Part shown: positions 13,718 to 21,529 of the stretch, piece by piece
Layout: each line of letters begins with the position of its first letter
How positions within the stretch are numbered: position 1 is the stretch's first letter
The notes under the pieces: model-generated
What the model was told of the DNA's origin: nothing
Database searches by the model: none
What the model saw: the letters and a program-made list of their open reading frames with translations, nothing else
Position numbers and translations under genes: made by a program
Source of the DNA: an uncultured Bacteroidota bacterium
GTDB taxonomy: Bacteria > Bacteroidota > Bacteroidia > Flavobacteriales > Flavobacteriaceae
Assembly: GCA_902595825.1 (NCBI GenBank)
Contig: CACJRP010000003.1
Coordinates: 40,715 to 104,714 of the forward strand
Reading direction: 5' to 3'
DNA length: 64,000 nucleotides

Positions 13718-16405
13718 TTAAAAGTTTAAATTTGGTTTTAACCACTTAATAGCACTTTCAAGAGTTATTTTTTTTCTATTTGCATAATCCTGTACTTGGT
13801 CTTTAGAAATTTTCCCAACTCCGAAATATTTTGCACTGGGATTTGCAAAATAATATCCTGAAACAGAGGCTGCAGGCCACATCGCCAGACTTTCTGTCAA
13901 TGAAACACCAATATTTTTTTCAACATTAAGAATATTCCAAATTGTTTGTTTCTCTAAATGATCTGGACATGCAGGATATCCTGGAGCAGGTCTAATGCCA
14001 GTGTATTTTTCTTTAATTAGATCGTCATTGTTGAATTTCTCGTCCGGTGAATACCCCCAATATTTAGTTCTCACAATTTTGTGTAGATATTCTGCATAGG
14101 CTTCTGCCAATCTATCGGCTAAAGCTTTCACCATTATAGAATTATAATCATCATTTTTATTTTCATAGTGTTTGGATAGTTTGTCTGCTCCGATACCTGT
14201 AGTAACGCAAAAAATACCTATGTAATCGGAATATCCAGTATTTTTAGGAGCAATATAATCAGATAGTGCCAAGTTTGGTTTATCATTTCTTTTCATTAGC
14301 TGTTGCCTTAGTGTATAAAAAGTTCCCAAAAGTGTTTTTTTATCATTTGAAGAATATACCTCAATATCGTCATCTACAGTGTTAGCGGGAAATAACCCAA
14401 AAATTGATTTTGCTTTAAGAGATTTATTTTTTAAAATTTTTTGAAGCAACTGATTAGCATCAGAAAATAATTCTTTGGCTTGTTGACCAACAATTTTATC
14501 TTCTAATATTTCTGGATATCGACCATGTAAATCCCAAGATCTAAAAAAGGGACTCCAATCAATATATTCAATTAATTCTTCCAAATTTTGATTTTTTGTA
14601 ATTGTGATTCCCCTGTTCTTAGGTATACTAGGTTTAAACTCTTCCCAATTTAATTTTATTTTATTTTTCCTGGCCGATTTTATGTTTATAAGTTCTTTTT
14701 TAACTTGCCTTTGTAAAAATTTATTTCGGAAATCTTCGTATTCTTTCCTTATTGTTTGTTTATAAACAATTGATGTTTTTTTATTTAATAAACTCCCCGC
14801 CACTGTAACTGCTCTAGATGCATCATTTACGTGTACAACTGGAGTGTTAAGTTCTGGGGCTATTTTGACTGCCGTATGTGCTTTGGAAGTTGTAGCTCCT
14901 CCTATTAATAGAGGAATATTTATTTTCTGTCTTTTTAGCTCCTGAGCTATAAAAATCATTTCATCCAAAGATGGTGTGATTAATCCAGATAATCCGATGA
15001 GATCAACATTTTCATCTTTTGCTGTTTTTAAAATTTTTTCTGGTGGTACCATGACTCCCAAATCTATTATTTCAAAATTATTACAGCCTAAAACAACACT
15101 AACAATATTTTTTCCAATATCATGTACATCTCCTTTAACCGTTGCCATTAGAATTTTGCCTGCAACTTTTTGTTTTCCACTTTCTTTTCCTGACTCAATG
15201 TAAGGTAACAGGTATGAAACTGCGTTTTTCATAACTCTTGCGGATTTAACAACTTGTGGTAAAAACATTTTACCAGACCCAAACAAATCTCCAACCACAT
15301 TCATTCCATTCATTAAAAAGACTTCAATGACCTCTATCGGCTTATTAACAATTTTTCTTGCCTCTTCAACATCATTATGTATAAATTCTTCTATACCTTT
15401 TACTAAAGAATGAGTAATTCTACCTTGTAAATCTAATTTTCTCCAGGACTTTTCTTTGAGTTTGGTTGTCTTATTTTCATCAGAAAGGTCTTCAGCAAAT
15501 TTGAGCAACCTTTGAGTTGCATCATCTCTTCGATTTAATAAAACATCCTCAATATGAAGAAGTAAATTCTTAGGTATTTCGTCATAGACTTCAAGCATTT
15601 CTGGATTTACAATACCCATGTTCATCCCATTTTTAATTCCATGATATAAAAATGCAGAGTGCATTGCTTCCCTGACTAAGTTATTACCTCGAAAAGAAAA
15701 AGAAACATTGCTAACGCCTCCACTGACACTTGCATAAGGTAAATTTTTTCTTATCCATTTGGCTGACTTAAAAAAATCTACAGCATTTGTCTTATGCTCA
15801 TCCATCCCTGTTGCAACAGGAAAAATATTTGGGTCAAAAATGATGTCTTGAGGAGGAAAATGAACTTTTTTTGTTAAAATTTTGTATGCTCTTTCACATA
15901 TTTCAATTCTCCTCAAATAATTATCTGCTTGTCCATTTTCATCAAATGCCATAATAACTACTGCAGCACCAAATCTTCTGATCTTTACAGCATTTTCAAT
16001 AAATTTCTTTTCACCCTCTTTTAGACTTATAGAGTTCACTACGCACTTACCTTGAACCAGTTTTAATCCAGCCTCTACAACCTCCCACTTTGAGGAATCG
16101 ATCATAATTGGAATTCTAGAAATATCAGGTTCTGAAACAATTAAATTTAAAAATTTTGTCATTGCCTCAACTCCATCAATCATACCTTCATCCATGTTGA
16201 CATCCAAAATTTGTGCTCCCCCTTCAACTTGATCCCTTGCAACTTCAACTGCAGATTTAAAATCATCCTCTTTGATATATTTTAAAAATTTTCTAGATCC
16301 AGTGACATTTGTCCTTTCCCCAATATTTACAAAATTTGATTCTGGAGTTATAATCAGAGGTTCTAGACCAGATAACTTTAGATACTTATCCATTGTCGAA
16401 TTCAA
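13718..16405 (-). CDS. metH: Methionine synthase, pterin / cobalamin-binding / activation domains (split MetH)
   Basis: 895 aa; [64 protein letters not shown]. Confidence 0.95.
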
Positions 16406-17385
16406 ATTTTTCTTGGTTTATAATTTCTAGCAATTTCAGCTATTAATCTTATGTGTTCAGGTTTTGTTCCACAACAACCTCCAACTATATTAATTATATT
16501 TTCTTTTAAATAATTTTCAATAAGCTCTGACATTTCAGTTGCTGTTTGGTCATAAGCGCCAAAGGCATTTGGAAGACCTGCATTTGGATGTACAGAAGTG
16601 TAGGTGTTCGTAATATTTGATAATCTCTTTACATAAGGTAAGAGTTGGTCAGCTCCTAATGCACAATTAAATCCTATACTTAAAAGTGGGATATGTGAAA
16701 TTGAAATCACAAATGCTTCCACAGTTTGACCCGACAAGGTTCTTCCACTTGCATCCGTAATTGTACCGCTAACCATTACTGGAATATCTAATTTTTTTTC
16801 GCTTTTTATTTTATCAATTGCAAATAGAGCCGCTTTAGCATTTAAAGTGTCAAAAATAGTTTCTACAAACAAAATATCAACACCACCGTCGATTAAACCT
16901 AAAACCTGATCTGAATAGCAGTTTACTAAATTATCAAATGATATAGCCCTGTATCCAGGATCATTAACATCTGGAGATAAACTAGCTGTTCTATTGGTTG
17001 GTCCAATTGAACCGGCAACAAATACCTCAGATTTTTTTGTGCTATTACAAAACTCATCTTTTACCTCTTTAGCAATTTTTGCACCGGCATGATTAAAATC
17101 ATACGCGTATTTTTCCATTCCGTAGTCTGCGAGACTTATAGATGTAGAATTAAAAGTATTTGTCTCTATTATATCAGCTCCCGCCTCTAAATAATCTCTA
17201 TGTATAGATTTAATTAAATCTGGCATGGTTATGTTGAGCAGGTCATTATTTCCTTTCAATGGCTCTTTATGATTAACAAATCTTTTTCCTCTAAAGTCAT
17301 TTTCATCAAGAGAGTGTTCTTGAATCATAGTACCCATTGGTCCGTCTAAAATCATTATTCTTTCATTAAGGATTTTTTCTATCAT
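16402..17385 (-). CDS. metH: Methionine synthase, homocysteine S-methyltransferase module (split MetH)
   Basis: 327 aa; [35 protein letters not shown] zinc motif. Confidence 0.94.
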
Positions 17386-18846: not shown

Positions 18847-20118
18847 TTATATTTTTGCAAATGATTGTTTTAAATCTTCTTTTAAATCATCCAAGTTTTC
18901 AATTCCAACAGATATTCTTACCAGATCAGGTGTAACACCAGTACTTTTTTGTTCGTCGACATTTAATTGTGAATGTGTAGTACTTGAAGGATGAATTATT
19001 AAAGATTTGGTATCCCCAATATTAGCTAGTAGAGCAAATATTTTTGTGCTTTCAGCAACTTTTTTTGCACCTTCAAAACCTTTTTTTAGACCAAATGTAA
19101 CAATACCACTTGAACCCTTTTTAAGATATTTATTAGCTAATTGATTATATTTTGATGACTTAAGTCCGGGGTAATTTACCCAACTTACCTCACTCTGCTC
19201 TTCCAACCATTTAGCAATATTTAATGCATTTTCAGAATGCTTTTGCATTCTAACTTCTAAAGTTTCTAAACCTTGAATTACTTGAAAACTGTTTAACGGA
19301 CTTGGTGCACTACCTAAGTCTCTTAAACCTTCAACCCGTGTTTTAGCAATAAACGCTAATGGTCCAAGAGCTTCGTGGTATTTTAGACCGTGATAAGAAG
19401 GTGATGGTTCAGTAAATTCAGGGAACTTCCCACTGGAATAATCAAAGGTTCCAGCATCAATTATAATTCCTCCCAGAGTAGTTCCATTTCCAGTAATATA
19501 TTTTGTAAGAGAGTGGATGACTATGTTGGCTCCATATTCTATTGGATTTAAAAGTGAAGGCGAAGCTATAGTATTGTCAACTATAAAAGGGACTTTTGCA
19601 TCTTTTGCATGCTTACTAATTCCTTCCAAATCAATAACATCTAGCTTTGGATTTCCTAAAGACTCAGCAAAAAACACTTTAGTGTTTGGCTTAAGAGCAT
19701 TTTTGAAATTTTCAACATTATCTGGATCAACAAAAGTGGTAGTTATGCCAAATCTAGGTAAAGTATTATTAAGCATATTATATGTCCCACCATATAGACT
19801 ATTTGATGCAATAATATGGTCACCTGATTTTAATAATGTCATGAATGTGGTTGCAATCGCTGAAGTTCCAGAAGCAGTAGCTACTGCAGCAACACCTCCT
19901 TCTACAGCTGCCAATCTTTGTTCTAAAACATCATTAGTTGGGTTATTAAGTCTAGTATAAATGTAACCTGACTCAGAGAGCGAAAATAAATTTGCCGCAT
20001 GCTCAGAGTTATTAAAAACATATGATGTTGATTGATAAATTGGTACGGCTCTGGTGCCTTGTGTTTGTTTCACATCATGCCCTGCATGAAGTGCCTTAGT
20101 TGCTAATTTTAAACTCAT
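18847..20118 (-). CDS. metY: O-acetylhomoserine aminocarboxypropyltransferase / cysteine synthase
   Basis: 423 aa; TKALHAGHDVKQTQGTRAVPIYQSTSYVF, IVIHSLTKYITGNGTTLGGIIID. Confidence 0.93.
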   Translation of the reverse strand: MSLKLATKALHAGHDVKQTQGTRAVPIYQSTSYVFNNSEHAANLFSLSESGYIYTRLNNPTNDVLEQRLAAVEGGVAAVATASGTSAIATTFMTLLKSGDHIIASNSLYGGTYNMLNNTLPRFGITTTFVDPDNVENFKNALKPNTKVFFAESLGNPKLDVIDLEGISKHAKDAKVPFIVDNTIASPSLLNPIEYGANIVIHSLTKYITGNGTTLGGIIIDAGTFDYSSGKFPEFTEPSPSYHGLKYHEALGPLAFIAKTRVEGLRDLGSAPSPLNSFQVIQGLETLEVRMQKHSENALNIAKWLEEQSEVSWVNYPGLKSSKYNQLANKYLKKGSSGIVTFGLKKGFEGAKKVAESTKIFALLANIGDTKSLIIHPSSTTHSQLNVDEQKSTGVTPDLVRISVGIENLDDLKEDLKQSFAKI

Positions 20119-20129
20119 TTTTGAAATAT

Positions 20130-21386
20130 TTATTTATTTAAGTAATCATTTATTTTTTTTACATAATTTAAATTTTCCCAAGTAAATAAATCCACTTTGT
20201 GATTTACTTCTTGATTATTTTTATTTAGAAAAATTTTATTAATTTTTTTATGTTCTCTTCCCATATGACCGTAAGATGAGGTTTCTAAGTAGATAGGATT
20301 TCTTAGATCTAGATTTCTTTCAATTGAGTAAGGCCTCAAATCAAAAATTTTATAGATCATTTCAGTTATTTCTGAATTAGTAAGTTTAATCTTTGAAGTT
20401 CCAAAAGTATTTACATTAATTGAAGTAGGTTCTGCAATTCCAATGGCATAACTCAATTGGACAAGTATTTTACTGGCAATTCCTGCAGCAACTAAATTCT
20501 TTGCTATATGCCTGGCAGCATAAGCTGCACTTCTATCAACTTTGCTGGGATCTTTACCGCTAAACGCACCTCCTCCATGTGCTCCCCATCCTCCGTATGT
20601 ATCGACGATTATTTTCCTTCCCGTAAGACCAGTATCTCCGTGAGGCCCGCCTATAACAAATTTACCTGTGGGATTCACAATTATTTTTGTATTGCCGTTA
20701 TAGAGAGATCTTATATTTTGTTGCTCATTCTCAAACACACGAGGTAATAGAATTTCGACAACATCCTTTTTGATTTTGTTAACCATTTTCTTATCGTTTT
20801 TTTCAAAAGGATCATGTTGTGTTGAAATTAATATTGTATCGATCGAGAGAGGATTTCCGTTTTTATCATATTCTACCGTTACTTGAGATTTAGAATCTGG
20901 ACGTAAGTATTCAATTAGACTTCCCTGCCTTCTTAAAACAGACAATTCTCTTAGAATTTTGTGTGATAAATCTAGAGTTAAAGGAATCAAGTTTTCCGTT
21001 TCATCAGTTGCATAGCCAAACATAATCCCTTGGTCTCCAGCCCCTTGATTTTCTTTCACCCTTTTTTCAACACCCCTATTAATGTCTTCTGACTGAGAAT
21101 GAATTAAAGAAGTTACTTCACATTCATTTGCGCTAAATTTAATCTTAGAATCAGTATATCCAATTTTCTCAATTGTTTCTCTTACAATTTTCTCAATATT
21201 TATTTGAGCAGAAGATTTTACCTCACCTGCAACAATTACATTATTTGTTGTTACAAGCGTCTCACAGGCCACTTTACTCTCTGGGTCAAAAGCTAAATAA
21301 TTATCCAGAATCGCGTCACTAATTTGATCAGATACTTTATCGGGATGTCCTTCACTAACAGACTCAGAGGTAAAATAGGTATTCAT
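20130..21386 (-). CDS. metK: S-adenosylmethionine synthetase (start placed at [18 protein letters not shown])
   Basis: [79 protein letters not shown]. Confidence 0.96.
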
Positions 21387-21391
21387 TTTAT

Positions 21392-21431
21392 TTGCTTTCA
21401 GGAAGGATTTGAAGATTACTTTTGAAAGCAA
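21392..21431 (-). promoter_or_regulatory. Expression-platform hairpin sequestering the metK translation start region
   Basis: Minus strand TTGCTTTCA-N22-TGAAAGCAA, perfect 9-bp arms, ending 5 nt before the metK ATG. Confidence 0.75.
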
Positions 21432-21432
21432 T

Positions 21433-21484
21433 TCTGCTTTAGCATTTTTTTTTCGAGGTTTGCAATCAGACAAATCCTTCCTCG
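21433..21484 (-). ncRNA. SAM-II-type riboswitch aptamer upstream of metK
   Basis: Minus strand CGAGG-AAGGATTTG-TCTG-ATTGCAAA-CCTCG-AAAAAAAAAT-GCTAAAG-CAGA: P1 CGAGG/CCTCG, loop ATTTG and ATTGCA, tail GCTAAAG, pseudoknot TCTG/CAGA. This order matches the SAM-II architecture and sits in front of the SAM synthetase gene. Confidence 0.82.
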
Positions 21485-21495
21485 TAATTTTTTTG

Positions 21496-21529
21496 TAAAT
21501 ATAATAAATTTTGTTAAAAGGTAGTCAAA
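21496..21529 (-). promoter_or_regulatory. Putative Bacteroidetes-type promoter for metK 5' UTR
   Basis: Minus strand TTTG-N22-TATATTTA, matching -33 TTTG / -7 TANNTTTG with one mismatch, a few nt upstream of the aptamer. Confidence 0.6.

What the first reader, a model, noticed from the sequence alone, without database searches (positions are those of the whole stretch)
21392..21484. SAM-II-type riboswitch in front of metK with a clear two-state expression platform
Read on the minus strand, the 5' UTR has P1 CGAGG/CCTCG, loop elements ATTTG and ATTGCA, an A-rich linker, tail GCTAAAG and pseudoknot TCTG/CAGA. This is the SAM-II layout, seen here before SAM synthetase. Downstream there are two exact, interleaved stems. 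Stem A, TTGCTTTCA (21431-21423) with TGAAAGCAA (21400-21392), ends 5 nt before the ATG and would mask the initiation region. Stem B, GGAAGGATTTG (21481-21471, inside the aptamer P1/loop) with CAAATCCTTCC (21411-21401, inside the stem A loop), is 11 bp and would destroy both the aptamer and stem A. SAM binding would block stem B, so stem A forms and translation is off; without SAM, stem B forms and the start is open. No SD sequence is involved, which fits Bacteroidetes initiation.
Basis: partly seen in the sequence, partly recalled or inferred. Interest (0 to 1): 0.8.

Follow-up and report, generated by a model that had tools for sequence, protein, structure and literature searches.

The report
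SAM-II riboswitch with two-state metK leader
The leader of a marine flavobacterium's SAM-synthetase gene carries a known type of SAM-sensing RNA followed by a conserved pair of competing RNA stems that probably open or close the start codon without a Shine-Dalgarno site, and both stems recur across related bacteria.

Summary
Rfam SAM-II (RF01726) matches at 73.6 bits over a cut-off of 44, full length, in front of a bona fide metK. Stems A (9 bp) and B (12 bp, not 11) are exact.

The two-state platform is real. In 109 metK SAM-II leaders of the family, an anti-aptamer of 8 nt or more follows the aptamer in 60, against 4.7 expected by shuffling, and it covaries with the variable aptamer linker. 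Stem A, ending 1-8 nt before ATG, recurs in deep-branching marine lineages with compensatory changes. Of 36 leaders fetched by the 5' arm alone, all 36 carry the 3' arm.

I add three points. Stem B is extended by a 6-bp helix, B'. Stem A's 5' arm can also pair with the aptamer's own tail (hairpin T), which makes the states exclusive; A and B alone would not be. Folding energies favour stem B by 8-13 kcal/mol, so control is probably kinetic.

Outside the family the anti-aptamer is not in excess. The aptamer and its link to metK are known; I found no description of this platform. SAM binding and regulation are untested.

The parts
21429..21489 (-). SAM-II riboswitch aptamer (RF01726, long-loop form)
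   Evidence: cmscan 73.6 bits, gathering 44, model 1-60/60
21480..21484 (-). P1 5' arm CGAGG
   Evidence: sequence; Rfam structure line
21454..21458 (-). P1 3' arm CCTCG
   Evidence: sequence; Rfam structure line
21467..21470 (-). pseudoknot 5' strand TCTG
   Evidence: sequence; pairs kept in 97% of cells in alignment A1
21433..21436 (-). pseudoknot 3' strand CAGA
   Evidence: as above
21471..21482 (-). stem B 5' arm AGGAAGGATTTG, inside aptamer P1 and loop
   Evidence: inverted repeat I1
21400..21411 (-). stem B 3' arm (anti-aptamer) CAAATCCTTCCT
   Evidence: inverted repeat I1; anti-aptamer in excess in 109 leaders
21462..21467 (-). helix B' 5' arm GATTGC, inside aptamer
   Evidence: MFE structure
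21414..21419 (-). helix B' 3' arm GTAATC
   Evidence: MFE structure; kept in the genus and L050
21423..21431 (-). stem A 5' arm TTGCTTTCA
   Evidence: inverted repeat I2; covariation
21392..21400 (-). stem A 3' arm TGAAAGCAA, 5 nt before ATG
   Evidence: inverted repeat I2; covariation
21435..21440 (-). hairpin T 5' arm AAAGCA, in the aptamer tail
   Evidence: apo folding of the 63-nt transcript; excess over shuffles
21425..21430 (-). hairpin T 3' arm TGCTTT, shared with the stem A 5' arm
21496..21503 (-). probable -7 promoter box TATATTTA (consensus TAnnTTTG, one mismatch here)
   Evidence: TAnnTTTG upstream of 135 of 145 related aptamers against 1 of 145 in a control window
20130..21386 (-). 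metK, methionine adenosyltransferase, 418 aa
   Evidence: TIGR01034 515 bits, cut-off 309
18847..20118 (-). O-acetylhomoserine sulfhydrylase (metY), probable same operon
   Evidence: TIGR01326 622 bits
17828..18838 (-). MetX-like homoserine acyltransferase, below the curated cut-off
   Evidence: TIGR01392 168 bits, cut-off 500
16402..17385 (-). MetH N-terminal homocysteine-methyltransferase domain as a separate gene
   Evidence: matches positions 1-319 of 1182 of TIGR02082

Best explanation
The element is a SAM-II riboswitch that turns metK (and probably the met genes behind it) off when SAM is plentiful, by a strand exchange that acts on translation initiation. Without SAM, the transcript folds in order: aptamer hairpin, then the free aptamer tail pairs with the arm just behind it (hairpin T), then the anti-aptamer CAAATCCTTCC emerges and invades the aptamer (stem B, extended by B'); the bases just before the ATG stay open and ribosomes can start. 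With SAM bound, the aptamer and its tail are locked, so T and B cannot form; the freed arm TTGCTTTCA pairs with TGAAAGCAA when that emerges, giving stem A, which ends 5 nt before the ATG and covers positions -14 to -6, where the ribosome must land. The TGAAAGCAA arm looks like a copy of the aptamer tail, so one switch arm chooses between tail and start region. No Shine-Dalgarno site is involved. Shown by sequence and comparison: aptamer class, gene, stems A and B, their conservation. Inferred: SAM binding, direction, hairpin T, kinetic control, effect on translation.
For: Rfam match; metK. Anti-aptamer complement of at least 8 nt in 60 of 109 family leaders against 4.7 by shuffling (max 12), direct-repeat control 3. 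Linker/arm covariation P = 0.0002; L070 has 13 nt, GGAATAATTTGGTC with GACCAAATTATTC, changed on both sides. Stem A significant in 18 of 109 leaders at p<=0.01; own arms pair better than swapped arms, 21.7 vs 18.4, P<=0.0002, one pair appearing as CG, TA, GC and AT; 28 two-sided changes, 0 of 500 shuffles. Leaders fetched by 5' arm only: 36 of 36 carry the 3' arm. Folding of the growing transcript: apo forms P1+T, then B+B'; aptamer-blocked RNA forms A. T: P about 0.001. Promoter box just before the aptamer in 135/145; no SD-like site in 142/145. In F. johnsoniae, structure around the start tunes initiation and mRNAs lack SD (PMC6847099).
Against: No experiment. Calculated energies: P1+A -13.4, B+B' -21.5 kcal/mol, gap (OFF minus apo) median 11 over 54 leaders; SAM binding and the pseudoknot, which are not in the model, would have to supply this, or control is kinetic. 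Predicted change of accessibility around the start is small on average (0.04 in stem A leaders, P 0.0009 against shuffles). Stem A is absent from most of the family, so those members need another OFF structure. Within the stem A lineages the aptamer arm of B hardly varies, so B has no within-clade covariation. Hairpin T is broken in L050 and L025.
Confidence: 0.75

Rival explanations
1. Transcription attenuation: stem A or a neighbouring hairpin ends transcription when SAM is bound, as proposed for many proteobacterial SAM-II riboswitches.
For: Terminators are the commonest predicted mechanism for SAM-II in alpha- and beta-proteobacteria (PMC2258182; PMC1273637).
Against: Stem A is followed by ATAAAATG, not a run of U; a run of 5 or more U in the last 20 nt before ATG is seen in only 14 of 145 leaders. 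Stem A ends 1-8 nt from ATG in all lineages, a constraint that a terminator does not need. Rho-dependent termination that follows loss of translation is not excluded.
Confidence: 0.1
2. Direct occlusion: the SAM-bound aptamer itself blocks the ribosome, as in the Sargasso Sea metX SAM-II, and stems A and B are secondary.
For: This is the standard model for SAM-II (PMC10907184), and one relative, L096, has the metH ATG directly at the aptamer tail.
Against: Here the ATG lies 47 nt behind the aptamer tail, so the aptamer cannot cover it; there is no SD in or next to the aptamer tail; the conserved stems would be unexplained.
Confidence: 0.06
3. Stems A and B coexist or are static: A and B interleave without sharing bases, so they could form together as a pseudoknot, or A could simply set a low constant rate of translation or protect the mRNA.
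For: Topology of the arms; stem A occurs without an exact anti-aptamer in L011.
Against: In the window B' leaves 3 nt to span the whole B/B' helix, and in L015 only about 2 nt separate the A arm from the anti-aptamer, so coexistence is sterically unlikely; A's 5' arm is complementary to the aptamer tail, which links it to the aptamer state.
Confidence: 0.1

Closest known systems
SAM-II long loops, RF01726 (Weinberg et al. 2010, PMC2864571)
   Same: Same aptamer model over its whole length; same taxa (Bacteroidetes, marine).
   Different: The Rfam model stops at the aptamer tail; the main text gives no expression platform. I could not read its Additional File 1.
Sargasso Sea metX SAM-II riboswitch (2QWY), direct-occlusion group (PMC10907184)
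   Same: Same ligand class and pseudoknot plan; probably also a translational OFF switch.
   Different: There the ribosome site lies inside the aptamer. Here the start is 47 nt away and is reached through competing stems, with no Shine-Dalgarno site.
Sinorhizobium meliloti metA/metZ SAM-II (PMC9373788)
   Same: SAM-II upstream of methionine genes, one acting at a distance from the start codon.
   Different: metA works through an SD sequence in the riboswitch and metZ through a predicted terminator; no anti-aptamer or stem A is described.
Strand-exchange riboswitches in general, such as SAM-I terminator/antiterminator
   Same: Two mutually exclusive structures, one using the outer aptamer strand.
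   Different: Output is access to an SD-less start codon; the anti-aptamer enters the P1 5' strand and the ligand-binding loop of an H-type pseudoknot.

Membership tests
SAM-II riboswitch (RF01726) | Covariance model score above the gathering cut-off, full length | tested here: met
   73.6 bits over 44, positions 1-60 of 60
SAM-II riboswitch (RF01726) | P1 helix and P2 pseudoknot | tested here: met
   Both present; in alignment A1 P1 90% and pseudoknot 97% of cells paired, mostly invariant
SAM-II riboswitch (RF01726) | Upstream of methionine/SAM genes | tested here: met
   metK; 109 of 114 family loci precede metK
SAM-II riboswitch (RF01726) | Binds SAM and discriminates against SAH | not testable with these tools
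   Needs in-line probing or ITC
Direct-occlusion SAM-II platform | Ribosome site within or next to the aptamer 3' strand | tested here: not met
   ATG 47 nt downstream of the aptamer tail; no SD-like site before ATG
Intrinsic-terminator platform | Hairpin followed by a run of U before the ORF | tested here: not met
   Stem A is followed by ATAAAATG; U-runs rare in relatives
Two-state strand-exchange translational platform | Conserved, covarying competing helices, one reaching the initiation region | tested here: met
Two-state strand-exchange translational platform | Ligand-dependent exchange between the two helices | not testable with these tools
   Needs structure probing with and without SAM

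The most novel reading that the evidence does not exclude
Flavobacteriaceae share a SAM-II expression platform not described before, in which an anti-aptamer and a single switch arm that reads either the aptamer tail or a copy of that tail beside the start codon decide, during transcription, whether an SD-less start is open.
Probability: 0.5. Interest if true: 0.7.

Novelty: new variant of a known kind. Interest (0 to 1): 0.55.

Why it matters
Most translational riboswitches are explained by hiding a Shine-Dalgarno site, which Bacteroidetes mRNAs lack. This leader gives a compact, strongly conserved case in which the only target is the structure around the start codon, with named arms that can be broken and restored. 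It would extend SAM-II from direct occlusion to strand exchange and supply many natural variants for study.

Tried and rejected
An in-frame extension of metK from TTG 21473 through the leader is coincidence: only 10 of 145 leaders are open in that frame. Anti-aptamer as a feature of all Bacteroidetes SAM-II: rejected, outside the family 4 of 46 leaders against 3.7 expected, apart from L244/L250, where GATTTGGC and GCCAAATC have both changed, and L249, L276. Stem A outside the family is weak (7 of 48 at p<=0.05). A copy of the aptamer tail near ATG as a family-wide rule: rejected, no excess in leaders without stem A. Equilibrium accessibility of the start gave only a small effect.

Full report
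What is there. The minus strand at 21489-21429 matches the Rfam SAM-II (long loop) model over its whole length at 73.6 bits against a cut-off of 44. It is the only riboswitch hit in the 64 kb window at the gathering threshold. The gene 42 nt beyond the Rfam match is methionine adenosyltransferase, metK (TIGR01034, 515 bits), followed by metY, a MetX-like gene, an unassigned gene and a separate MetH N-terminal domain on the same strand. Stem B has one more pair than stated (12), and the minimum-energy fold adds a further helix B', GATTGC with GTAATC.

More than chance. The RF01726 aptamer is found in 6 of 7 genomes of the genus, 189 of 201 of the family, 78 of 119 drawn from the order and 28 of 198 from the class. 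Of 114 oriented family loci, 109 precede metK. In those 109 leaders the stretch between aptamer and ATG holds a perfect complement of at least 8 nt to the aptamer core in 60 cases; shuffles that keep dinucleotides give 4.7 (never more than 12), and direct copies of the core occur in 3. The complement is usually GTCAAATC (to GATTTGAC), in other genera TTGCAATC (to GATTGCAA). The letters beside it follow the variable linker of the aptamer: at the second position 49 of 63 form a pair, 36.6 expected after permutation, P = 0.0002. This test ignores relatedness. L070 has changed on both sides over 13 nt.

Stem A. A helix from the bases right behind the aptamer to the bases right before ATG is significant (p<=0.01) in 18 of 109 leaders. 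On a MetK tree these are mostly deep-branching lineages, many with small genomes, plus L010 and L112; the label needs 5 changes against 17.9 for shuffled labels, and the deep branches are poorly resolved. I then searched named genomes for the aptamer tail plus the 5' arm only; of 37 hits with an aptamer, 36 precede metK and all 36 carry the matching 3' arm near the ATG. In 34 non-redundant leaders, own arms pair better than swapped arms (21.7 against 18.4, P<=0.0002), and one pair occurs as CG, TA, GC and AT. The pair-counting tool finds 28 two-sided changes (P1 and pseudoknot included, most of them in stem A) and none of 500 shuffles reaching that; sliding the partner by one column drops pairing from 91% to 35-51%. 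Stem B in the same alignment keeps 87.5% pairing, mainly through G-U changes, but its aptamer arm is nearly invariant, so there is no covariation within this clade.

How it probably works. Two features close it. B' uses bases up to 21419, three bases from the A arm. And the A 5' arm TTGCTTT is complementary to the aptamer's own tail AAAGCAG (hairpin T): this complement (6 nt or more) is present in 11 of 14 stem A leaders not fetched by pattern, including L011, where tail and arm have both changed; sum of scores against shuffles P about 0.001, without correction for relatedness. So the arm can serve the tail (start open) or the tail-like sequence beside the ATG (start closed). Folding growing transcripts, the free RNA makes P1 and T at 63 nt and B with B' by 83-91 nt, before the 3' arm of A is complete; with the aptamer blocked, A forms at 95-99 nt. 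Energies favour B strongly (P1+A -13.4, B+B' -21.5; median gap 11 kcal/mol in 54 leaders), which points to a decision during transcription rather than equilibrium. That is inference from a model that omits the pseudoknot and SAM.

Translation rather than termination. Stem A is followed by ATAAAATG without a U-run; relatives rarely have U-runs there, and SD-like sites before the ATG occur in 3 of 145. In Flavobacterium johnsoniae mRNAs lack SD sequences and structure near the start tunes initiation (PMC6847099). A promoter -7 box, TAnnTTTG (the consensus is from my own knowledge), lies just before the aptamer in 135 of 145 leaders against 1 of 145 control windows, so the aptamer starts the transcript. 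The predicted average change of accessibility is small.

Limits of the platform. Outside the family SAM-II still precedes metK in nearly all loci where the downstream gene could be placed, but the anti-aptamer is not in excess and stem A is weak. Within the family most leaders have an anti-aptamer but no stem A; their OFF structure is open.

Known or new. The aptamer is known (Weinberg 2010, PMC2864571). SAM-II is reviewed as a direct-occlusion riboswitch (PMC10907184), with predicted terminators in proteobacteria (PMC2258182) and an SD mechanism in S. meliloti (PMC9373788). Six literature searches found no account of this platform; subscription papers and supplements were not searchable. I file it as a SAM-II riboswitch with a new variant of expression platform.

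Noticed in passing
L036, L038 and L037 (genomes G087, G059, G010), downstream of the SAM-II aptamer: Second SAM-II aptamers (69-70 bits) precede a QueF-like protein (PF14489) followed by a DUF6580 membrane protein in L036 and L038, and DUF6580 directly in L037; a SAM switch in front of a queuosine-type gene and a possible transporter is unexpected.
   Followed up: partly
L096, aptamer end to ATG: The SAM-II tail runs directly into the ATG of a metH N-terminal gene, a direct-occlusion arrangement in the same family.
   Followed up: partly
L043, L056, L082, L112, L280 and others, between P1 and the aptamer tail: Many family members carry an extra hairpin-like insert in the A-rich linker of the aptamer.
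   Followed up: no
L071, L073, L079, L085 and many non-stem-A leaders: A small hairpin GACG-loop-CGTC covers the GTC of the anti-aptamer GTCAAATC, possibly the OFF structure where stem A is missing.
   Followed up: no
window 16402-17385 minus: MetH is split: the N-terminal homocysteine-methyltransferase domain is a separate 327-aa gene at the end of the metK cluster.
   Followed up: no
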